64,000 bases of DNA, taken from contig DAIDHX010000179.1 of the NCBI GenBank assembly GCA_027451885.1, forward strand, positions 1 to 64,000, read 5' to 3'. This document shows positions 1 to 12,920 of the stretch, one piece after another (the first letter of the stretch is position 1; each line of letters starts with the position of its first letter). The position numbers and the translations under genes were made by a program. Source of the stretch: Planctomycetales bacterium. GTDB taxonomy: Bacteria > Planctomycetota > Planctomycetia > Isosphaerales > Isosphaeraceae. The notes beneath the pieces were generated by a model. It saw only the letters and a list, made by a program, of their open reading frames with translations, was not told the DNA's origin and searched no databases.

Positions 1-562
1 CCGTGTACCTGCGCTCGCGGCTCTCGGTTCGGTAAACCGGCTTCTGAACGGAATACCTGCGCTCTCGATTCTCCGTGGTAATAACCGGGCGGTAGACCGT
101 GTACCTGCGCTCCTGGTTGACGGTTTCATAAACCGGCTTGCGGACGGTGTAGCGCCGCTCACGCTTCTCGGTCTCAAAGACCGGCTTGCTCACGGTGTAC
201 CTGCGCTCGTGGTTGACCGTCTTGTAGACAGGCCGCGAGACAGTGTACGGGCGCTCGATATAACTCGTCTCCGAAACCGGGCGCTGGACCCTGTAAGTTT
301 CGTTGCGATATTCGAGGCGGTATCGCGTTTCGAGAACGGTGGCTGGAACGTTCTCATAGACCGTCTCGTAAACGGTTTCATAAACCGTTTCGACCCGGGG
401 CTGGAGGGTAACGACCTCATACGAGGTTGCCATCACGGGCGCAGGCGCGCAGGAATGGCACGCTCCCCCGCCATAGGTGGCATACGCCGGGGTCGCGGCC
501 CAGACGGCCACAAACGCCGCCAGGACCCCGAGCGCGGCGGGCGTGGACTTCTTGACCTTCAT
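1..562 (-). CDS. Exported protein with 16-residue Y-T-V repeats, C-terminus outside window
   Basis: Reads from an ATG at 562 with AGGAG about nine bases upstream and stays open to the window edge, so only the first 187 residues are seen. Residues 1-28 are a signal peptide (KVKK, then a hydrophobic run, A-Y-A near 26-28). A CHSC pair follows at 35-38, then a V-Y-E-T rich stretch (50-75). From about residue 104 a 16-residue unit of the form RERRYTVxKPVxETxN repeats at least four times; each unit is 48 bp of near-identical DNA. Proteins of this kind (signal peptide, YTV/KPV repeats) are common in planctomycetes and are presumed cell-surface or periplasmic; no function is known to me. The repeat is tyrosine- and arginine-rich, so a structural or wall-binding role is a guess. 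Confidence 0.8.
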   Translation of the reverse strand, partial: MKVKKSTPAALGVLAAFVAVWAATPAYATYGGGACHSCAPAPVMATSYEVVTLQPRVETVYETVYETVYENVPATVLETRYRLEYRNETYRVQRPVSETSYIERPYTVSRPVYKTVNHERRYTVSKPVFETEKRERRYTVRKPVYETVNQERRYTVYRPVITTENRERRYSVQKPVYRTESRERRYT

Positions 563-1318: not shown

Positions 1319-1975
1319 CTACGCTTTTTCCGCGCGATGGGTTCGGTTCGCGCAGGCGCAATGGGTTCGGTCCGCGTGGGCGCAATGGGTTCGGTTCGCA
1401 GTCGACGGTTCTCCTTTTCTGGATTCTCGTTACGGATATCTTATGCTCGATTTCGCGCAGCGGTTGTGGCACCACTTTCTGACAAGTTCTGGCTTCACCT
1501 TCTGACGCGCCTGGGTTCGACTTCTGGCGCGTTTGGGTTCGGTTCGTCGGGGCGTGGAAACAACGCCTTCGACTGCGCTGCCGATACGAGCACGCAGCGC
1601 GCTCGTGCGTGCATTCGTGCCAGGTCCGCCCCTCAAAGCCGGCGCTCAGCAGGTCACGCTTTTTCCGCGCGTTGGGTTCGGTTCGCACGGGCGCAATGGG
1701 TTCGGTTCGCAGTCGACGGTTCACGTTTAATGGCTTCATGTTCTGGCGAGCCTCGGCTCGATTTCGCGCAGCGGCTGTGGCACCATTTTCTGACACGCTT
1801 TGGCTTCACTTTCTGACGCGATTGGGTTCGGTTTCTGGCGCGGAAACAACGCCCTCGACAGCGCCTCCGATACGAGCACGCAGCGCAAGCAAGTGCGTGC
1901 ATTCGTGCCCGGTCCGCCCCTCAACGCCGGCGGCCAGCAGGTCACGATTTTTCCGCGCGTTGGGTTCGGTTTGCG
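1319..1975. repeat. Tandem copies of a ~290-330 bp repeat containing 24-bp subrepeats
   Basis: Unit A (about 1319-1651), unit B (about 1652-1938) and the first ~37 bases of a third unit (to 1975) follow one another. Each opens with CTTTTTCCGCGCG or a close variant, then one to three 24-bp subunits built on TGGGTTCGGTTCGC, then a conserved CAGTCGACGGTTC, a GCAGCGG-TGTGGCACCA block, and an end block around TCCGCCCCTCAA. A diverged copy in the same orientation lies at 55240-55650. Read on the plus strand, units A and B keep one open frame over about 45 residues (SRRFxFxGF then WLHxLTRLGS); on the minus strand the subrepeat reads RTEPIAPA or ANRTHCAR. Length differences between copies break any long frame, so I treat it as a DNA repeat rather than a gene. 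Confidence 0.75.
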
Positions 1976-2767
1976 CACACGCGGCCTGTCCGTCGATCCG
2001 GTCGCTCGGACGCGGGACCTGTATAACCGCGCGAAACATGCTGATCCTCGCATCCGTCAACCGCAGCGCGCATGGGCGAATAGGACCCGAGGTTGTTCGT
2101 GGGTCGAGGGGCGTCCGAGTCTGGTCGCGATTGGTGACGATGGGGATGGTCGAAGGTGTTAGAGCGCGGGCGATGGAGAACGAACGCGCCTTGGTGATCT
2201 CTTGCGGTCGAACGAGGCCGTCTCAGGTTGTCACGTCAACTGGTCTCAGAATCAATCTAACGCGCCTCGGCTCCGCGCGAAATTCGCATAGCTGGAATTG
2301 TGGCTGATGGTACCAGCGGACAGGAGCTGCGGGCCGGAGCGACGAGGATCAACGTCCTCACAGGGCTGGGGATTCTCAGGCTGCCGTGGGCCGACCGGCG
2401 TCGACGGCGGAGGGTCCTCATGGTGGGAATCGTCCCACTTCCGGGCCCCTCAATCTCGTCCCTCCTCTCCTTCTCAGAATGCGTCTTGGCGGTGGCCGTG
2501 ACCCCTCACGGGTTTGGAAGGTTCCCGCCGACGCTGAGGCAACTCTTAATCAAGAGGGACACGGCTGTGGCATCGCCCATACACGCAGGATACGATGTGG
2601 GCTTCGGGGCAATCCCGATTGTCCCCGATGGGGGGGGAAAGCGAGAGCCTGACGACACGGCCTCCCAAAGCTGGAATTGCGACGGCGAGGTCAGGACTTG
2701 AGCCTCCAATACTCAGACGATTCCAGCAGTCCACGAGCGCAGATACTCATCTAGGAGAGGAGTTTCC
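1976..2767. other. Gene-free stretch between the repeat block and the Druantia-like genes
   Basis: About 790 bases with no gene I can support. Short open frames exist on both strands but show no known motif. Its last bases carry the strong ribosome binding site (AGGAGAGGAG, 2753-2762) of the next gene, so the promoter of the defence operon should lie here. Confidence 0.5.
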
Positions 2768-5700
2768 TTGAAAGGCAGCTTCTCGTCGTACGGGATACCC
2801 GGCTTAGAGCCGGAACGCAGGGCAATGCTATCCCAAAGTTTTTTCGACAACCCCTATGAATTCGCAGGGCTCGCTGACCTGCCTGAAGATGATGAGTTTT
2901 TAAAGCAGACCTTCATAGATCTTAGAAACTGGCTCGGCTGTCGAACGCTATTAAGCACCGAAGAGGAGCTGGCGGAGGTAATGTTTGCCCTGATTCGAGT
3001 GGCTCAGTCTGATTACGAGGACGGAAGTTATTGGCCCTGTGTGAAGGAACGACTTGGTCTCGTTAGCCTTGTACCGCAAGATCAAGAACGCCTCGGTGAT
3101 TGGTTCCGCCGCGGATTGAACCGCTTCAACTACTTCGTCCCAAAACCGAAAAAGTCTCAAAAGCATTTAACCCCCATACTGATACACGCGGGCGTCCCTC
3201 GTGGCTCCTTGGAGGGGCTCATCCAGTTCGTCACGAGCCAGCTCGAGCGGCATGGCAACTGGCTGGCCGACCCCGCCGAGTCGGCCCCAGACCTGATCCG
3301 ACAGCTCGTGCGTGGATATACAGGTCCCCTACTGCATCGCAACGTCAGGCGGATTTTAAGGAGCAAGCGCCGCGGTGCTGCCGAATTGTGGTCCTCACTC
3401 GCTCGCGTAATCCTCGCGCCGGCCGATTCTCCCGAATCCGAGGAGGCACTTCGCCTGCTTCCTCCCGGAGTTAACCCGAAAACAGTACGTGAGGCCGTCC
3501 GACGAAATGCCACATCAACGACCTATCGGCAAACCAGCCGGCCCCCACAGCTCCGCTACGACCCGGATACCGGTTCCGTGCGTCTCCGCGTGCATCGGGG
3601 CTCCGCGGAAGACTGGGATCTTCAAGCGGGGGAATGCCGGTACAATTGGGATTCATTGCCTGATGGCGCTTCCGCCGAGTTCTTCGATCCGCTCCCCGAA
3701 GATATTTCGATCCGTCCTCTTAACTCGGAACACGGAATCCGCCGCGAATTCTCGCCTCGGCCAGCCGAATGGCCCGGCCTTTGGTTTCGAGCCTCGACGG
3801 GGAATCTGGAACAAGGCACGGCCATTGACGGTAGCGGCGTTGAGCCAGGCCGCTGGTTCGTCCTGTTCGAAGGCACCCCCGACCAACCCGGGGACGCTGT
3901 ACCGAAGCCGTTGAATTGGGCATTCTTCGGCTCGGAGAATTGGTCCGCCTGGGAAGTCGATGTACCAGCGCGTTCAAAAACTCAGCAGAGGTTTGTCTGG
4001 AAGGTTGGTGAGAATGAGTTCAGCGTCCCGTTAGCTCGACGTCCGGGACCTTCTGTACGGATCTCAGATCCGATCCTCTACGCTTCATCACAGGAGGGCG
4101 ACCGCCTTGCCGTTTATGGAGAATGCCCCGTTGTGACCCTCGACCGGGACCGTCCCTACGGTGCCCAGCTTTGGCGACGGATGGGAGATCGCTGGGAGCC
4201 GGGACGAAAACTGGAGCTGTGTCCTGATCAGCAAATGCTCCTGACCCTCGAACTGGCAGGGCTTTATCGTCTGCGGGAAACGCAGGGGATGGGACGCATC
4301 CTCGCGGAATTCGCGTTTGTCCCAGGGCTGAAAGTTAAGGGCCCGACGATCCGAAGCGAGCTAGCTCACGTTGAGGTCGAGGCGGACGCTCAAGCTGGCA
4401 CGATCCGGTCGACGGCAGATTGTGGGGGTACCAAAGTGCACTGCCTGCGGCCAGGGGTCTGGCACGCATCAATCTCTACTGTTGAACCACAGCTCACAAC
4501 CGTCTGGAACTGGCGCGACCAAGAGACTCCCGACCTCTTGTTTCGTTGGGTGATTCCCGGATTTCGCTGGACAATCATGGGGCTGAAGGGAGAGATTCCC
4601 AAATGGACCCGCGAACTGATTGTAGTCGATGAGGCTCGCGTCACTCACGAGGCCGCCCAACTCGAGATCCACATCCCGGAGGGTTCGGACCTTAGAATCA
4701 ATGGCGAGATTGCAATCCTTAAGCCGGGCATCGCGGGCCTCAGGGCCATGCGTAGCCTGAATGCTTACTCGGGACTGATCCGACTAACTCACCATGACAC
4801 CGACCATGACGCGGTCCTCACCACTCGTCGTCCGATTCTCGAACGATTCGAAGTTGAGTTCGACGAGACGGCCGTTATTGCAAGCTGGCAGCCTACACCC
4901 CCAGGCGGAACCGTACTGCTCGCCTGGGACCCGCTTTCGCTTACCGAATCGCCGAAAGTCGTCCAACTCACGGAAGCGGAGTTGAGAGAACCAGGGGAAT
5001 GGGTCGGAACCTGGGAAGCCCTACCGCAATCAGACAACATTGCCGTCGCACTGGCTCGCCGACATTCTTCCTCCGGGCTTAGCTTGGGGCCGTCCACTTA
5101 CGTCCCGGCAATTGACCGTCTTGATCGGAGAAAGGCCAAGGTATGGCTCTGCGAACGTCCCAATGGCCGGTCGGGAGAGATCACACGACTCTGGAGCCGC
5201 CTTGCCTTCGACATTCAGGTCGACCTCCTCTCGCCCAAGCCTCGCGCGGAGATCGACATTGCTGCTCGACTCAAGGAAATTCAGCAGGGAGGACCACTTC
5301 CGCTCCGACAAATCCTGGCATTCGCCTCGGCCCTGGCAACTTCCCCTCTGCTAAGAGTGGCCGATAAAGAATGGGTCCGACGCTATGCCGAGGAGATCCG
5401 CCAGCGTGCAAACTCGCCTACCATGCTCGAGAGCTGGGTCGAATGCGCGTACTCGGTAACAGAGAAGGATGACGCAACTGGCGTTGGCCAGCTCCTACGG
5501 AATGGAATTCATCCGGGTTGGGCTCAGCCAGAATGCCTTCCGTACCGACCGAGTCTTCTGGATTCACTCACACTCCCCTTGAAGTATTACCGCGACCTCT
5601 CGCTGATAAGCACAGCATCAAGCCAAGTTACTTGTATAACTTCGGACTTTGACTTAAGCACCGTCCACGGTCCCACACGCGACGACCGCTTACGCGCGGC

Positions 5701-6523
5701 CAAGAGAGTGCGGAACTTTCATCAGATTTGGGAACTCCCTTCCCCCGAGCTCTTCCTTCCCTGGCGATCCGGCGCGGTCACGGTTCCAGACCGCGAACCC
5801 CATCGTTACCACGAACTGAACTTCAAGCGTCCGGCCGGAGAAGGCGAGGACCATTTTCTCGAAGAGCTTGGTCTCAATTTCCTGGAGATAGACGGGACGG
5901 ATCCAAAGCGAGGGGGGAAGTTCGAGTTGACCTGGGACCCAGGAGAAAATGGCTGGACCATTGAGGCTCGGTGGAATAATCGGTTTACACGCCCCTGGAG
6001 TACCGGGACGACTCCGCTCCTTTGCCCGTACACCGATCCTCTCCGATTGGCCGAGCGGATCGGACTCAGAGACCTTTTGGTTCACTGGGCACCGAAAACA
6101 ACATCCCTCAAGGAGACCCAACAACTCCTTCCCACCGATCCAATCGACGAATTCCTGAAGAGAGAACCCGCTTCTGCTGCTCTCCACTCGTTCGTCCTCG
6201 AACCTCCGCAAGTAGCCGAAAGGCTCTTGCAGGGAGTATCAATCCGCATCGCGACTGACCGCCCTATCCATGACACTGTACACACCGCCTGGAGGATCTC
6301 GTGGGTCGATCGACTCGCGGCGAGGCGGGGAACCGACAAGCTATTCGGACCAGGTGGGCTTCGTTCAATCGAGAAGTCTCAATACCTTGGAGCCTTGGCG
6401 GTCATGCTCGAACGTGAGGAGGGTTTGATGGTACGCACACTCGCACTGGTCGAGCTCCTCATCAGGACGTTGTATGACGGTGGGATCGGCTTCGCTGGAA
6501 AGTTTGCCATAAAGCCTCGCTGA
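2768..6523 (+). CDS. Large protein of unknown fold, DruH-like partner of a Druantia helicase
   Basis: 1251 residues. The start is TTG 2768, five bases after AGGAGAGGAG; the next in-frame ATG is 2825. It has no signal peptide, membrane segment or enzyme motif I recognise. The first ~200 residues look helical (LTPILIHAGVPRGSLEGL near 135-155); residues ~230-800 look beta-rich with many W/G/P turns, as in Ig-like repeats; the last ~170 are helical again. The stop lies just before the helicase gene (GTG 6525, or ATG 6576). A protein of over 1000 residues with no known domain directly before a ~2100-residue DUF1998 helicase is the layout of type III Druantia (druH-druE). That assignment rests mainly on the partner and on length, not on sequence recognition. 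Codons are less GC-biased than in flanking genes, which fits horizontal transfer. Confidence 0.6.
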   Translation: MKGSFSSYGIPGLEPERRAMLSQSFFDNPYEFAGLADLPEDDEFLKQTFIDLRNWLGCRTLLSTEEELAEVMFALIRVAQSDYEDGSYWPCVKERLGLVSLVPQDQERLGDWFRRGLNRFNYFVPKPKKSQKHLTPILIHAGVPRGSLEGLIQFVTSQLERHGNWLADPAESAPDLIRQLVRGYTGPLLHRNVRRILRSKRRGAAELWSSLARVILAPADSPESEEALRLLPPGVNPKTVREAVRRNATSTTYRQTSRPPQLRYDPDTGSVRLRVHRGSAEDWDLQAGECRYNWDSLPDGASAEFFDPLPEDISIRPLNSEHGIRREFSPRPAEWPGLWFRASTGNLEQGTAIDGSGVEPGRWFVLFEGTPDQPGDAVPKPLNWAFFGSENWSAWEVDVPARSKTQQRFVWKVGENEFSVPLARRPGPSVRISDPILYASSQEGDRLAVYGECPVVTLDRDRPYGAQLWRRMGDRWEPGRKLELCPDQQMLLTLELAGLYRLRETQGMGRILAEFAFVPGLKVKGPTIRSELAHVEVEADAQAGTIRSTADCGGTKVHCLRPGVWHASISTVEPQLTTVWNWRDQETPDLLFRWVIPGFRWTIMGLKGEIPKWTRELIVVDEARVTHEAAQLEIHIPEGSDLRINGEIAILKPGIAGLRAMRSLNAYSGLIRLTHHDTDHDAVLTTRRPILERFEVEFDETAVIASWQPTPPGGTVLLAWDPLSLTESPKVVQLTEAELREPGEWVGTWEALPQSDNIAVALARRHSSSGLSLGPSTYVPAIDRLDRRKAKVWLCERPNGRSGEITRLWSRLAFDIQVDLLSPKPRAEIDIAARLKEIQQGGPLPLRQILAFASALATSPLLRVADKEWVRRYAEEIRQRANSPTMLESWVECAYSVTEKDDATGVGQLLRNGIHPGWAQPECLPYRPSLLDSLTLPLKYYRDLSLISTASSQVTCITSDFDLSTVHGPTRDDRLRAAKRVRNFHQIWELPSPELFLPWRSGAVTVPDREPHRYHELNFKRPAGEGEDHFLEELGLNFLEIDGTDPKRGGKFELTWDPGENGWTIEARWNNRFTRPWSTGTTPLLCPYTDPLRLAERIGLRDLLVHWAPKTTSLKETQQLLPTDPIDEFLKREPASAALHSFVLEPPQVAERLLQGVSIRIATDRPIHDTVHTAWRISWVDRLAARRGTDKLFGPGGLRSIEKSQYLGALAVMLEREEGLMVRTLALVELLIRTLYDGGIGFAGKFAIKPR

Positions 6524-6575
6524 CGTGAGTTCATCAGGTTCATCCTTTGCCAGGCCTCGTGCCGGGGAATCATTC

Positions 6576-9500
6576 ATGAATCCCATCGACGTCGCGAACG
6601 CACTACGTCATCGATATATTTCTTATCTGTCGACCATGTTCGGGTTGAGCCAAGCATTTTCCGAATTCGGGCGTGAATTTGAGCGAATCCTTTCGGAGCC
6701 AGGTCAGCTCCTGGCGGGTCCCTTCCTGGAAGCGACCGCGCCTTATAGCTCGAGTGACGACACTCTGGAGAGCCTCGTTGAAATGGGGGTTCTACATGAA
6801 GGGTTCCGAAACCTTTTCGCGGCGTCTGAGGCCGCTGCGCCGAGCGTGACCAATCGTCCCCAGGCTCAACGCTTGGTTTTTCGAATCGGTGGCACTTCGA
6901 CGCCGACCCGTCGGGATAGGCGTGAACGCATTCCTGGTGACCGTAAGCTCTATACTCACCAGGTCCTGGCAATCCGCCGCCTCTGTCGCGAGATTGATCG
7001 GTACGACGTCGACCGGCATACCGTCGTCGCGAGCGGCACGGGCAGCGGGAAAACAGAGTGCTTCCTACTTCCAGCAATCGATTGGGTCCTTCGTCATCCC
7101 ACGCGCAACCGGGAGGGGCAGTCAGTTGTGGGGCGCGGACTTAGGGTACTGCTGGTCTACCCAATGAACGCCCTCGTCAACGACCAGATCCGGCGGCTTA
7201 GGCAGCTCGTAGGCTATCGTTCTGATCGTGGGGATGCCCCGATCCCGATCACCTTTGCACGCTACACAAGCGAGACCCGCGACAATCCCCAAATCGCCCG
7301 ACAGAGGGAACCGGATGCCCCCTCGAACCAGATCTTGACCCGGACAGAGATAATCAACAATCCGCCGGACATCCTGATCACGAACTTCGCAATGCTCGAG
7401 CAAGCCCTTCTGAGACCACAGGAGTCGCCTTTCTTCAATGAAGTAGATGAATTTGCGTGGCGCTTTTTAATCCTTGACGAGGCCCACAGTTACCGAGGCG
7501 CTCAGGCGATCGAGCTTGCCAGGCTGATGCAGAGGGTTCGTGCGGCTGTCCGCCGGGGAAAGCGAAATAAGCGTGTTCCAGAACGTGAACCGGTCTGCAT
7601 CGCGACGAGCGCCACGCTTGTCGATCCGAAAACGCCCCCTACAGAGCAACGTCAAGCCACGGCTCAGTTTGCTGGTGCGCTTTTCGGACTCTCCATCACC
7701 GACGAGTCAGTCATCTTTGCGCAGCGAGAGGACCCTGCGACCTGGGGGGATCCCTGGACGTTCAGGGATCTTGACTCATCCAGGACAGCCGACGAAAGTT
7801 GGTGTCACCTCGATCCGGCTGTCTTCTCTCAGCTAGACCTCCCAGCCGATGAGCCCTTCTGGCAACGCTTTGCCGGAATTGCGATCCCGGAAGTTTACGA
7901 CGCGGCGCGAACCATTGCGGGCAATGATCGAAGAGCTTTCCTGTTCCACCTCCTCAAAGGGCATCCACGATTCCACTGGCTTTGGTCACGCATCAAAGAC
8001 GAACCGGAAAGGGTAGAGATTCTGGCAGACGAGTGGGGCGGTTCAGACGCCAATGCGGTGCTGTCGGCGCTTGAGAATCTCGTTGCTGGCTGCAACGCCG
8101 CGAGGAGACGCCCCGGAGACCAATCGCTACTACCCTGCCGCTACCACCTCTTTGCCAGCGCACTAGAGGGTCTGTTCGTCGACCTCGCCGCCGATGGCGA
8201 AGTCGCGCCACCCGGAAAACCTTGGTCCCTCCCCGAGCTCGCCATCCGAGAACTGGCGGTTCGCCGTTTTCTTCCTTCAGGCCGACTGGCTTTCGAGATC
8301 GCCCACTGCAACGGCTGCGGATATCCACTTGTCGTGACCGAAACCTCCCGAAAGGCCGAAGGCAACCTCGACCAACCTCCTGCCTGGGAACGTCCCGTCC
8401 ACTTCCTGGCTTTCCGGCCCGACCGGTCCGAGGGCGATCCGCTTCCGCCCGCTCGCCTCGACTTGACAACAGGAGGCATTGTTCCAGATATCGGAAGAAG
8501 CTCAACTGGGCTCTATCGTACTCTGTACCAGGTCCCTCTCAGTAAGAATTGCACTGACATTAAGTCATGCCCTTACTGCGGTCGTGACCATCACTTCCCA
8601 TCCGTGGCGTCGCGGATGATGACCGGCCAGGATGCCCCGGTCAGTGTGCTGACCGAGGCTCTCTACGAGCAACTCCCGGGCCTCCGTCCGGACCAACTTG
8701 CCACTCTGCAGGAGAACTATGGACACCGGTGCGGAGCTAATAATGACCCAATCGTCGGAGAGGCCCGCAAACTCCTGATCTTCAGCGACAGCCGGCAAAA
8801 TGCAGCGTTCATGGCGTCGTATCTCCAAGATCACACCAGTACCTATTTGATTCGCAAGGTTGCATTCGATGCTTTCCGCAACAACCCTGGGGTGCTATCT
8901 CTCGGTGACTGGGCGTCTCTCACGGTCAGCGAAATCGGAGCTAAGTCACTTCATATCCCTTTCCTTGAGGATCGAGACCTGGCGGATATCGGAACTGGGG
9001 GACCTTTCCGCGAGTCGTATCTCCGAGAGAATCAGGCCAGGAGAAACCGAATTCTCTCCTGGCTCCTTGACGAAGTCAGCGGTTCTCAGCCACTCGCGCT
9101 CGAAGCACTGGGGCTGCTCCAAGTCGGTGTGCCTTGGGGGGACATCCGTGTTTTGGGCCAACCGCGTGAGACCTCTCTAGAGGCCGAATTCCAGTGGCCT
9201 GGCCCACCGTTAACCATCGGCGATCTCAAGGACTTGATCGACCGCGTCTTTCGCCACATGCGCCGACGGTTTCTCGTAACGGCGCCTTCAGGTGTCGACC
9301 GCCCGGGATTCGGCGGCCCGACCCAACCATACCTGGTCCGCGAGAAAACTCCAGAGCACGATGACCACTTCCACGGTCTGCTCAACGCAAACAATCAGGA
9401 CACGATTTACGTTGAGTTCTTCCGACGTTGGGCGAAACGGCGTAGTGGTGGCCACGATCCGTCTCCGGAAGTGATTCGAGCGATGGGTAGTGCGATTTTC

Positions 9501-12500
9501 TCAATCATGGAGGAGCATCTCACTCCGTGGGTCCATGCCGTTACGGAGCAGGGTGTCAGAGCCCTGGCACTCCGCCATGAGGCAGTCCGTGTCTTCCGCG
9601 CAAAGCAGCTCTGGAAGTGCGACATCTGCGGATCCTATGCCGCAAGCTATCTCGATGGAGTTTGTCCGGAACGAGGGTGTCACGGTTCTCTCAAGGACGT
9701 CCCAGAACAGGACCGTCCGGAACAATCTCCAGATGGTCACATGTTCGTGCAGAGCTATGTAAAAGGTCCGCGACGGGAACTCCGATGCGAGGAACATACA
9801 GCACAGCTCTCGCCCGAGTTTGGCCAGGAGGTCCAGGAAGCCTTCCAATGTGGACAGGTCAACACCCTCTCATGCTCCACGACGTACGAGATGGGCGTAG
9901 ACATCGGATCCCTCCAAGCGATCGTGCTCCGAAACGTCCCGCCGAGCACAGTGAATTACGTTCAGCGGGCGGGTCGGGCCGGCCGCCGAGCGGATACCGT
10001 CGCGTTCGTCCTGACCTTCTGCCAACGCCGTCCTCATGACCGGCATCATTTCCAGTCGCCAAAGGGCATCATCGCCGGACGAATCCGTCCGCCCCAGATC
10101 GACCTCGCCAACCAGAAGATCCTCCAGAGGCACTGCAATGCAGAAATCCTGACGGAATACTGGGGGTGGTTAGACGCTCAGTCCGTGGGCGGAAGGTCCG
10201 ACGCATTTCGAATGGCCGGAAACGTCGGGGCTTTCTTCGACGACCGTCTCGACGGCACGAATACGACGCCGTACGAATATCTCCGGACATGGCTTGCCGA
10301 CGAAGCCAACCGCCTGCGATGCCTCGAGCGGCTCGGGCACGCTTTCAGTCTCACGGCTGAAGACGCTGCCCGCCATTGCCATCGTATGGCTGATTCGGCC
10401 TCGACCGAGTCGAATCCCTTGGCAAGGGCCGCCGAGGATTCGCTCGGCCTCTTGAAGAGCTTTCACGAAGGTATAGAGGAGCATAGGGTCCGAGAGGCCG
10501 ATTGGCGCGAGAAGGCGGCTGAGGCACGAAGGACTGGGGACATCCTGTCTCGGCAACAATTGGCCAAGGAGGAAGACCAAGCGCATAGAGCAGTTAGGTC
10601 CTTCGAGATTCTAGAGCGGCAGCAGAGGGACGAGTTTCTGATCTCGTTCTTGATGTCCCGCGGCGTCTTGCCGAGCTTCGCATTCCCCGTCAACGTTGGG
10701 AAGTTGCACGTCCTTGCTGAGGAAATGCGCGAGAGTCGGAGGGCGAACACACCGACCATGCTCAAGTTCGACCGCGATATGAAGATCGCACTCAGCGAAT
10801 ACGCTCCCGGGGCTGAGATCGTTGCCGGCAAACGCATCTATGGCTCGATTGGGCTTAGGAAATTCCCGGTGCAGGAATTCGATTGGTTCAACTGGTTTCG
10901 CATCTGTCCGAAGTGCAATGGGCTCGAATTGATGTCCGATAGGTCGAGTCTCCCCCAATGCGACCCCGAATGTCGATACTGCGGTGAGATGGTTCCAGCG
11001 AGTCATAGAAGTCCACGACAATGGATCGAGCCCAGATGGGGCTTCGTGACGGACATCAACGCCAAGGCCGGAATCCCCCGAGGGCAAAGACCCTGGCGAA
11101 TCCCAACGGTTCGCGCCTTCTTCATCGGTGGTCGCCCCACACTGCCTGACAGGGAGGCTCCCGCAGATGGACGCCCTCCCGTTGAAACGTTCCCCGCAGT
11201 ACATGAGGAACTCTTCGTAGAGGGGCGTTACGCGAGCGGGCGGAGCCTCCTCGTGCTCAATCTGGGCGTTTTCAGCACAACTAAGGACGGGGTTTCGCTT
11301 CGTGACGGGTTCAAGGTCTGCAACCGTTGCGGGCGGGCTGACTTCAGGGGCCGGATACCGAAGAAAGGGCACCCTGCTCCATACCACCGTTTCGGAGCCG
11401 CATGCACGGGCCCCATTGGCATTGGTCCCTTCACCAGAGGTGAACCCGTCGCCTTGGGCCATCGCTACGAAACTGACGTAGTCTGGTTGGAGTTCCTCGG
11501 CGTGCCTGAAGAGCAAGCAGCTTCCGCGGGCTTCTGGCTCAGTCTCGCTTACGCGCTTACGAACGCCGCCACCGCCGAATTGAACATCGAGAGAAATGAC
11601 CTCGAGGCGACGACCGTCCCGCTCGAGAGGGAAAAAAGGCACGCGATCGTTCTCTACGACGCCGTTCCGGGAGGCGCCGGGCACTGTCGCCAGATCCTCC
11701 ACAACCTCCCCGCGGTCGTACGCCATGCTCGGGACCGGTTGGCCTCGTGCGATTGCGACCCGCAGGTAACGGGTTGCTATGGATGCCTGTGCGATTACCA
11801 AAACCAATTCGCCCACGATCAGTTGTCCCGCGGCGGTGCTCTCAATTACCTCGACCGGCTAGTAGACGAACTCGATCGAGGTGACCCAGCCCCCTGGCGT
11901 CAGCCAAGCCGTTCGCCCTGTCGCGAGATCGTCGACTCGCTTCACGAAGCCACTGGTGTCGTGAGCCTAACCGTTCACTCCATCGAATCCGGCACAATTC
12001 TGGGCCTGAACAAAGACTGGTTCGACATCCTGAAGGAGGTCGCTTCCCGTCCTTGCGGTTCTCGTAAGCTCAATCTCTTCATCGGTTCGTCCCCTGAACC
12101 CGGCAGAGACCCGGGGGCAACTGTGGCCTATCATCGTCTCGCCGAGCTGCAGCAACTAGGAGTCAACCTTCAGCTCTACGGGGAATCCGCACCCGAGTAC
12201 GCGAGTCTTCAGATCGACCTCCACGATCCGCGGGAAGGAATGGTCTGGCGCTGGCCCTGGTCGAACCCCCTCTCGCCCCTGATCGACAACGTCCAGAGAA
12301 GCAGACTCGGCCGCGTGGACATCGCTTTGCAATCGTTGGGAGCGACATCCGAAAGAGGCCCGTTACGTCTTCCAGAATTGAAGGAGTTTCATCATTTCCT
12401 GCTGCACCCAAGGATTCGACAGGACCCATGGGACGAGCGCTACCTCGGGCCGGTTCTGTCTCGACCCATTCATCGCCTGATGCTCATCGACCCGCATTTC

Positions 12501-12920
12501 TTGAGCGGAGCCGAGAAGCGAGACATGCTGGACCGATTCTTGCGTCGAATCGTCCCATCCGACCGCGTCGAAGTACGAGTTAAGACAGGTAGAGCAGCAA
12601 GGTTCGACGAGTTCCACGATCCTCGGACTCAAGACCAGGAGTGTCGCTCTCTGGAGAGTCGTCACCGACGGCTCAATCTTAGTGTCCTTATCCCAGACGG
12701 TATGCTCGAAGAGCACGACCGAACGATCTTGATTCAAACGGGTGACAGTCGCTCGTACCGTATTCTTTTGGGCCAGGGCCTATTTGGCTTCGAAGAGCGC
12801 TGCCGGAAGAGTTCCGAGGCAGTGTGGTTTGAGATCGGAACCCAGGAGTTTGAGGTCGGTTGGAACTCCCATTGGACCAGGTCGCCGAGCAGAATCAATC
12901 AGCCTTCGAGGAGGTACTAG
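6576..12920 (+). CDS. DruE-like superfamily 2 helicase with DUF1998 region, probable anti-phage defence
   Basis: About 2114 residues from ATG 6576 (GGGGA upstream; N-terminus MNPIDVANALRHRYISYL); a GTG at 6525 would add 17. Counting from the ATG: YTHQ at 126-129, Walker A GTGSGKTE at 154-161, YPMNAL near 195, LDEAH at 300-304, TSATL near 344. The second RecA domain has EMGVDIG near 1105 and QRAGRAGR near 1130. Cysteine clusters near 675 (CxYC), 1010 (CxxC) and 1445 (CxxC) look zinc-binding. A DUF1998-type region follows (VPGGAGHC near 1695, then a CDC and CYGCLC cluster near 1725-1740). The last ~300 residues hold an HDRTIL motif that may be a diverged phospholipase D-like fold. Size, domain order and partner gene match DruE of Druantia, an ATP-driven translocase that blocks phage. 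DISARM and Dpd also use DUF1998 helicases but with other partners. Confidence 0.78.
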   Translation: MNPIDVANALRHRYISYLSTMFGLSQAFSEFGREFERILSEPGQLLAGPFLEATAPYSSSDDTLESLVEMGVLHEGFRNLFAASEAAAPSVTNRPQAQRLVFRIGGTSTPTRRDRRERIPGDRKLYTHQVLAIRRLCREIDRYDVDRHTVVASGTGSGKTECFLLPAIDWVLRHPTRNREGQSVVGRGLRVLLVYPMNALVNDQIRRLRQLVGYRSDRGDAPIPITFARYTSETRDNPQIARQREPDAPSNQILTRTEIINNPPDILITNFAMLEQALLRPQESPFFNEVDEFAWRFLILDEAHSYRGAQAIELARLMQRVRAAVRRGKRNKRVPEREPVCIATSATLVDPKTPPTEQRQATAQFAGALFGLSITDESVIFAQREDPATWGDPWTFRDLDSSRTADESWCHLDPAVFSQLDLPADEPFWQRFAGIAIPEVYDAARTIAGNDRRAFLFHLLKGHPRFHWLWSRIKDEPERVEILADEWGGSDANAVLSALENLVAGCNAARRRPGDQSLLPCRYHLFASALEGLFVDLAADGEVAPPGKPWSLPELAIRELAVRRFLPSGRLAFEIAHCNGCGYPLVVTETSRKAEGNLDQPPAWERPVHFLAFRPDRSEGDPLPPARLDLTTGGIVPDIGRSSTGLYRTLYQVPLSKNCTDIKSCPYCGRDHHFPSVASRMMTGQDAPVSVLTEALYEQLPGLRPDQLATLQENYGHRCGANNDPIVGEARKLLIFSDSRQNAAFMASYLQDHTSTYLIRKVAFDAFRNNPGVLSLGDWASLTVSEIGAKSLHIPFLEDRDLADIGTGGPFRESYLRENQARRNRILSWLLDEVSGSQPLALEALGLLQVGVPWGDIRVLGQPRETSLEAEFQWPGPPLTIGDLKDLIDRVFRHMRRRFLVTAPSGVDRPGFGGPTQPYLVREKTPEHDDHFHGLLNANNQDTIYVEFFRRWAKRRSGGHDPSPEVIRAMGSAIFSIMEEHLTPWVHAVTEQGVRALALRHEAVRVFRAKQLWKCDICGSYAASYLDGVCPERGCHGSLKDVPEQDRPEQSPDGHMFVQSYVKGPRRELRCEEHTAQLSPEFGQEVQEAFQCGQVNTLSCSTTYEMGVDIGSLQAIVLRNVPPSTVNYVQRAGRAGRRADTVAFVLTFCQRRPHDRHHFQSPKGIIAGRIRPPQIDLANQKILQRHCNAEILTEYWGWLDAQSVGGRSDAFRMAGNVGAFFDDRLDGTNTTPYEYLRTWLADEANRLRCLERLGHAFSLTAEDAARHCHRMADSASTESNPLARAAEDSLGLLKSFHEGIEEHRVREADWREKAAEARRTGDILSRQQLAKEEDQAHRAVRSFEILERQQRDEFLISFLMSRGVLPSFAFPVNVGKLHVLAEEMRESRRANTPTMLKFDRDMKIALSEYAPGAEIVAGKRIYGSIGLRKFPVQEFDWFNWFRICPKCNGLELMSDRSSLPQCDPECRYCGEMVPASHRSPRQWIEPRWGFVTDINAKAGIPRGQRPWRIPTVRAFFIGGRPTLPDREAPADGRPPVETFPAVHEELFVEGRYASGRSLLVLNLGVFSTTKDGVSLRDGFKVCNRCGRADFRGRIPKKGHPAPYHRFGAACTGPIGIGPFTRGEPVALGHRYETDVVWLEFLGVPEEQAASAGFWLSLAYALTNAATAELNIERNDLEATTVPLEREKRHAIVLYDAVPGGAGHCRQILHNLPAVVRHARDRLASCDCDPQVTGCYGCLCDYQNQFAHDQLSRGGALNYLDRLVDELDRGDPAPWRQPSRSPCREIVDSLHEATGVVSLTVHSIESGTILGLNKDWFDILKEVASRPCGSRKLNLFIGSSPEPGRDPGATVAYHRLAELQQLGVNLQLYGESAPEYASLQIDLHDPREGMVWRWPWSNPLSPLIDNVQRSRLGRVDIALQSLGATSERGPLRLPELKEFHHFLLHPRIRQDPWDERYLGPVLSRPIHRLMLIDPHFLSGAEKRDMLDRFLRRIVPSDRVEVRVKTGRAARFDEFHDPRTQDQECRSLESRHRRLNLSVLIPDGMLEEHDRTILIQTGDSRSYRILLGQGLFGFEERCRKSSEAVWFEIGTQEFEVGWNSHWTRSPSRINQPSRRY

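What the first reader, a model, noticed from the sequence alone, without database searches (positions are those of the whole stretch)
2768..12920. Candidate type III Druantia anti-phage locus in a planctomycete
A 1251-residue protein of unknown fold is followed almost at once by a ~2100-residue helicase with Walker A, LDEAH, QRAGRAGR and a DUF1998-type cysteine cluster (CDC ... CYGCLC). This size and order match the DruH-DruE pair of type III Druantia. The pair is flanked by gene-free DNA and uses less GC-biased codons than its neighbours, as expected for a transferred defence module. The first protein is not recognisable by sequence to me, so it may be a new DruH type.
Basis: partly seen in the sequence, partly recalled or inferred. 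Interest (0 to 1): 0.82.

Follow-up and report, generated by a model that had tools for sequence, protein, structure and literature searches.

The report
Divergent two-gene Druantia-like phage defence
A planctomycete carries a probable two-gene anti-phage system: a DNA helicase of the Druantia family next to a large partner protein that no database recognises, probably a far-diverged relative of the known infection sensor DruH, so it is a new variant of a known kind of bacterial immunity rather than a new kind.

Summary
In detail: two adjacent plus-strand genes of 1251 and 2131 codons, 1 nt apart, with every quoted motif present and lower GC3 than nearly all neighbours. The helicase (P0002) belongs to the Druantia branch of YprA helicases, but not to type III. 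It scores about equally against the DruE1 and DruE3 models (556/537 bits; a true planctomycete type III DruE scores 2135), and grouping it with type III DruE is rejected (p-AU 5e-6). It sits in its own supported clade with two planctomycetes that carry relatives of the first protein, a third planctomycete and a phage. It keeps a recognisable remnant of the type III C-terminal PLD tail. The first protein (P0001) matches no DruH, Pfam or NCBIfam model. Its only close relatives (2 of 391 other planctomycetes) sit immediately upstream of sister helicases. A combined partner profile is remotely and collinearly similar to DruH in two stretches: an N-terminal (H/E)GG(I/L)P-type motif and the start of the beta-rich region. 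Both structure predictions failed, so the fold is unproven. Verdict: a divergent, Druantia III-like two-gene system with a remote DruH-type partner, probably sensor plus helicase(-nuclease). New variant of a known kind; 'type III Druantia' is only partly supported.

The parts
2753..2762 (+). Shine-Dalgarno-like sequence AGGAGAGGAG in front of the TTG start
   Evidence: Direct reading
2768..6523 (+). P0001, 1251 aa partner gene, proposed remote DruH-type protein
   Evidence: ORF; relatives only immediately upstream of sister DruE-like helicases; no hit in PADLOC, NCBIfam, or Pfam above cut-off
2768..3535 (+). N-terminal helical module (residues 1-256), with Y-x5-W near residues 83-89 and HAGVP at 140-144 (nt 3185-3199), the counterpart of EGGLP in DruH
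   Evidence: Alignments; hhalign match of the partner profile to DruH L061 in this stretch; helical secondary structure in a low-confidence model
3548..5140 (+). Beta-rich middle region (about residues 261-791), position of the Ig-like domains in DruH; near its start a shared signature 'EW...EG...P-x-L-x-F-D-x-x-T-G', reduced in P0001
   Evidence: hhalign partner profile vs DruH profile, score 51.4; L059 DruH match; hmmsearch to cyanobacterial partners
6525..12920 (+). P0002, 2131 aa DruE-like YprA-family SF2 helicase (probable start ATG 6576)
   Evidence: PADLOC DruE1 556 / DruE3 537 bits; Pfam DEAD, Helicase_C, MZB; tree
7035..7058 (+). Walker A GTGSGKTE
   Evidence: Conserved in the alignments of DruE-like helicases
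7473..7487 (+). Walker B LDEAH
   Evidence: DEAH invariant
9963..9986 (+). Motif VI QRAGRAGR
11544..11789 (+). MZB/DUF1998 zinc-binding domain with the four-cysteine cluster
   Evidence: Pfam PF09369 62-67 bits
11865..12917 (+). C-terminal tail similar to the PLD-type tail of type III DruE; H2064-x-R2066 at nt 12714-12722
   Evidence: hmmsearch E 0.0014 against a reversed control at E 2.6; hhalign score 35.8; H2064, R2066 and G2085 nearly invariant

Best explanation
The locus is a two-gene operon of the Druantia lineage of anti-phage systems, in a clade separate from types I and III. Gene 2 is a DruE-like helicase: two RecA domains, a zinc-binding MZB domain and a PLD-type tail that may or may not be active. 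Gene 1 is a highly diverged partner in the place of DruH, sharing with it an N-terminal helical module and the start of a beta-rich (in DruH, Ig-like) region. By analogy with Druantia III, P0001 senses an infection, probably a phage structural protein, and licenses the helicase, which loads on single-stranded phage replication intermediates, unwinds them and, through its own tail or the partner, damages them. Shown here: gene pair, helicase family, clade, co-occurrence of the two genes, remote sequence similarity of the partner family to DruH. Inferred: sensing, activation, DNA damage and phage protection.
For: The DruE models are the best hits, by 450 bits or more over DpdJ/DrmA. The helicase lies within a Druantia branch separate from ARMADA, 100/100 support, and in a 5-member clade with 99/98 support. 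Both relatives of P0001 found in 392 genomes lie directly upstream of a sister helicase, overlapping its start by 3-18 nt. The best non-family hits of the P0001-family profile among about 550 ORFs are the partner proteins upstream of other DruE-like helicases in three cyanobacteria and a phage (E 0.001-0.045). The combined partner profile matches the DruH profile at score 51.4, against at most 21 for 30 column shuffles and 15.8 for the reversed profile. Against about 200 long proteins, the two best distinct matches are DruH proteins, in two different collinear stretches. The tail matches the type III PLD tail. Mechanism by analogy: PMC13192584, PMC13316683.
Against: No pairwise or HMM similarity of P0001 itself to DruH. 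In the reciprocal search P0001 ranks only 129th of 197, although its relative L036 ranks 2nd. Structure prediction failed (pLDDT 35 and 34). Two of the three P0001-type helicases keep the tail and one has lost it. No defence island is visible: the right neighbours look like housekeeping genes and the left flank ends with the contig. No phage-protection data are known to me for this clade.
Confidence: 0.68

Rival explanations
1. It is a canonical type III Druantia (true DruH-DruE) that has diverged too far for the models.
For: Same two-gene order, sizes and spacing as true DruH-DruE loci; PLD-like tail; remote similarity of the partner to DruH.
Against: A true type III system in a planctomycete is easily recognised (L041: DruH 228 bits, YjiT 475 bits, DruE3 2135 bits), whereas P0001 gives nothing. 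Placing P0002 with type III DruE is rejected, p-AU 5.4e-6. Type III's nearest sister clade has different partners (L040, L072).
Confidence: 0.1
2. P0001 is an unrelated partner recruited by a DruE-like helicase; the DruH similarity is chance or convergence. Still a defence pair, but with its own sensor fold.
For: P0001 alone shows no detectable similarity to DruH; AF2 gave no usable fold; partners in this branch are diverse (a coiled-coil protein in L035).
Against: Two collinear matches of the combined profile to DruH rank first among about 200 proteins; shuffle and reversal controls; the spacing from W to (H/E)GGxP is 47-51 residues in both L041 DruH and P0001.
Confidence: 0.17
3. The helicase is a DNA-repair YprA/MrfA-type enzyme and the neighbour is incidental.
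For: YprA-family helicases include repair enzymes (PMC12458937); no defence genes next door.
Against: The Druantia-branch placement, the size and the PLD-like tail do not fit the repair branch as described in PMC12458937; the partner gene is kept next to sister helicases in other families.
Confidence: 0.05

Closest known systems
Druantia type III (DruH-DruE; E. coli and Mycolicibacterium smegmatis systems, PMC13192584, PMC13316683)
   Same: Two genes, large partner first, helicase of about 2000 aa second; MZB domain; PLD-type tail; remote similarity of the partner in two stretches.
   Different: Partner not recognised by any DruH/YjiT model; helicase in another clade (p-AU 5e-6 against grouping).
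'Druantia Type III-like' branch of YprA helicases (PMC12458937)
   Same: A Druantia-branch helicase outside type III; tail sometimes PLD, mostly absent, as seen among P0002, L037 (tail) and L036, L035, L070 (none).
   Different: The paper's text does not describe the partner genes or planctomycete members; whether its yellow branch is this clade could not be checked, as its tables were not readable here.
Cyanobacterial plasmid operons (Nostoc linckia L068, Pseudanabaena L067, Tolypothrix L066)
   Same: DruE-like helicase with tail; large upstream partner with the same two signatures.
   Different: Three genes (an extra 310-aa gene); helicases form their own clade.
Druantia type I (L047: DruA, 963 aa protein, DruD, DruE)
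   Same: Same helicase branch; the 963-aa protein is the best single-sequence match of the DruH profile at its N-terminus and has an H-x-I-L-P motif in the same place.
   Different: Four or more genes with DruA and DruD; helicase clade distinct.
ARMADA / DISARM / Dpd
   Same: YprA-type helicase core.
   Different: No methyltransferase or BrxHII-like gene beside the pair; helicase outside the ARMADA side of the tree.

Membership tests
Druantia (DruE helicase lineage) | Helicase groups with DruE proteins apart from ARMADA and other YprA helicases | tested here: met
   100/100 support for the 19-member Druantia side; DruE models best in PADLOC. The root was set on an assumed outgroup.
Druantia type III | Upstream DruH (PADLOC DruH3, NCBIfam NF038336/YjiT) | tested here: not met
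   P0001: no DruH hit at E up to 1, while L041 gives 228 and 475 bits
Druantia type III | DruE of the type III clade | tested here: not met
   p-AU 5.4e-6; 537 against 2135 bits
Druantia type III | Two PLD-like domains at the DruE C-terminus | tested here: inconclusive
   The C-terminal PLD-like segment is recognisable with the HxR motif; the first, inactive PLD was not resolved; the model failed
Druantia type III | Two-gene order, large partner then DruE | tested here: met
   1-nt gap, same strand, similar sizes
DruH superfamily (remote) | N-terminal helical module with the (H/E)GG(I/L)P motif, followed by Ig-like domains | tested here: inconclusive
   Motif and collinear profile similarity found; fold not obtained
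Druantia type I | DruA, DruB, DruC and DruD genes beside DruE | tested here: not met
   No gene between the pair and its flanks matches a known family of that kind; helicase clade distinct. DruA has a Pfam domain (DUF4338) that was not seen among the ORFs tested.
Druantia | Protection against phage | not testable with these tools
   Needs an experiment

The most novel reading that the evidence does not exclude
The clade is a distinct Druantia type, and its partner, DruH, the large type I Druantia protein and the cyanobacterial partner descend from one ancestral sensor whose N-terminal module has been kept while the rest diverged beyond recognition; one sensor lineage would then underlie several Druantia types.
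Probability: 0.35. Interest if true: 0.6.

Novelty: new variant of a known kind. Interest (0 to 1): 0.45.

Why it matters
The PADLOC models used here recognise only the helicase and miss the partner. If P0001 is a remote DruH, the Druantia sensor is older and more widespread than the YjiT family, and the conserved N-terminal motif gives a handle for finding more. The clade also offers natural variants with and without the PLD tail, useful for asking whether DruE needs its own nuclease.

Tried and rejected
Relatives of P0001 by pattern scan in genome contigs and viral contigs, and by tblastn in plasmids and phages: none. PDB sequence search of P0001 and its family profile: nothing meaningful. 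AlphaFold2 of P0001 1-801 and of the P0002 tail, each with a 3-row alignment: pLDDT 35 and 34, too poor, so no Foldseek search was made on them. The LmuB (Lamassu) hit of the L035 partner is probably coiled-coil similarity, since other coiled-coil families hit weakly too. Sigma-70 promoters: none found, uninformative in this phylum. Rfam: nothing. Pfam scans of neighbours of L036 and L037 showed no defence genes. Whether all type III-like helicases plus type III form one clade without type I is undecided (p-AU 0.056).

Full report
OBSERVATION. The first has a strong ribosome-binding site. The helicase probably starts at ATG 6576 (MNPIDVANALRHRYISYLSTMF...), because its relatives align from there. 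All quoted motifs are present. The pair has GC3 0.61/0.65, against 0.66-0.80 for 14 of 15 other ORFs measured. 'Gene-free flanks' is only partly informative: the window starts at the end of contig C179, and the left flank holds a repeat family with 114 matching pieces in this genome. The right neighbours are a permease, a methyltransferase, an FG-GAP protein and an ABC protein.

THE HELICASE. PADLOC gives DruE1 556 and DruE3 537 bits, against DpdJ 86 and DrmA 61; Pfam gives DEAD, Helicase_C and MZB. These scores need calibration. A true planctomycete type III DruE (L041) scores 2135 on DruE3, a true type I DruE (L047) scores 1979 on DruE1, and L043, which falls outside the Druantia branch, still scores 501. 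So the score alone does not assign a type. A maximum-likelihood tree of the helicase core puts P0002 on the Druantia side (100/100) and in a clade of five (99/98) with L036 and L037 (planctomycetes G061, G134), L035 (planctomycete G114) and L070 (a Ruminococcus phage). Forcing P0002 together with type III DruE is rejected (p-AU 5.4e-6). Whether all type III-like helicases join type III to the exclusion of type I is undecided (p 0.056). After the MZB domain, P0002 has a tail of about 350 residues. An HMM of type III DruE tails finds it weakly (E 0.0014, reversed control 2.6), L037 more clearly (7e-6) and the cyanobacterial helicases best; ARMADA-side tails do not match. L036, L035 and L070 lack the tail. 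This agrees with the published remark that type III-like helicases only occasionally keep the PLD domains (PMC12458937).

THE PARTNER. P0001 has no hit in PADLOC or NCBIfam and none above cut-off in Pfam, and no relative in plasmids, phages or the scanned contigs. Inspecting the upstream gene of each related helicase found two relatives, L037 (1381 aa) and L036 (1176 aa), both overlapping the start of a sister helicase by 3-18 nt. L036 and L037 are clearly homologous (E 1e-39), and P0001 matches them at E 4e-6 and 6e-5. A profile search found the family in 3 of 392 planctomycete genomes, all at these loci; a fourth hit at E 0.009 is not credible. The family profile, run against about 550 ORFs plus shuffled controls, next finds the large proteins upstream of DruE-like helicases in three cyanobacteria (E 0.001-0.03) and in the phage (0.045), although it does not find DruH.

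IS IT A DruH? True DruH proteins were collected from plasmids and from L041; all sit just upstream of DruE except in L060, where an IS element interrupts the locus. A seven-member partner profile against the DruH profile gives an hhalign score of 51.4 (probability 53%, E 1.4e-4 for one comparison); 30 column shuffles reach at most 21 and the reversed profile 15.8. Against about 200 long proteins, the two best distinct matches are DruH proteins: L061 in the N-terminal motif region and L059 in the first beta-rich region. The motifs read 'TPILIHAGVP' in P0001, 'TPILLHGGIP' in L037, 'STLWLQSGIP' in cyanobacteria and 'VTIACEGGLP' in DruH, with similar spacing to an upstream W. In the reciprocal test the DruH profile ranks L047's type I Druantia protein first and L036 second, both at their N-termini, but P0001 only 129th of 197. 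So the link runs through intermediates and is remote. Structure prediction could not settle it. The helical-then-beta order with a boundary near residue 256-261 resembles the published DruH layout (Ig-like domains from residue 257; PMC13192584), but the model is too poor to count.

MECHANISM. [quoted passage not shown] In M. smegmatis the DruH-DruE interaction is needed and a phage minor tail protein activates the system (PMC13316683). The most likely working of the present pair is the same: P0001 senses, and P0002 unwinds and damages. Everything beyond gene content and sequence similarity is inference.

NOVELTY. A type III-like branch of helicases is already reported (PMC12458937). New here are a planctomycete two-gene member, its unrecognised partner family, and the remote link of that partner to DruH and possibly to a type I Druantia protein. 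New variant of a known kind.

Noticed in passing
window 1321-1998 (also C179:55372-55645 and many other contigs): A dispersed repeat with a unit of about 290-310 bp; a 711-bp query matches 114 pieces at 73-97% identity over many contigs of this genome, several near contig ends.
   Followed up: partly
window 95-222 and 347-392: Tandem repeats of 48 and 24 bp at the contig start.
   Followed up: no
L070 (Ruminococcus phage NatCom_28274), 4251-11674: A phage genome carries a two-gene DruE-like operon (916 aa partner plus 1558 aa helicase without PLD tail) between an endolysin gene and DNA-replication genes.
   Followed up: partly
L066, L067, L068 (cyanobacterial plasmids): A three-gene operon: large partner (in Nostoc annotated as 'chromosome segregation ATPase-like'), a 310-aa protein, and a DruE-like helicase with PLD tail; in Tolypothrix the large partner is split into two ORFs.
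   Followed up: partly
L035 (G114), 5155-9441 minus: A sister helicase is preceded by a coiled-coil protein of at least 1428 aa with weak LmuB (Lamassu) similarity, cut by the contig end.
   Followed up: partly
L040 724-3552 and L072 2845-6822: Helicases sister to type III DruE have unrecognised upstream partners (942 and 1325 aa) weakly similar to each other (E 0.003), another possible Druantia variant.
   Followed up: no
L047 2566-5457: The 963-aa protein between DruA and DruD of a type I Druantia has no PADLOC hit but is the top match of the DruH profile among 197 proteins, at its N-terminus.
   Followed up: partly
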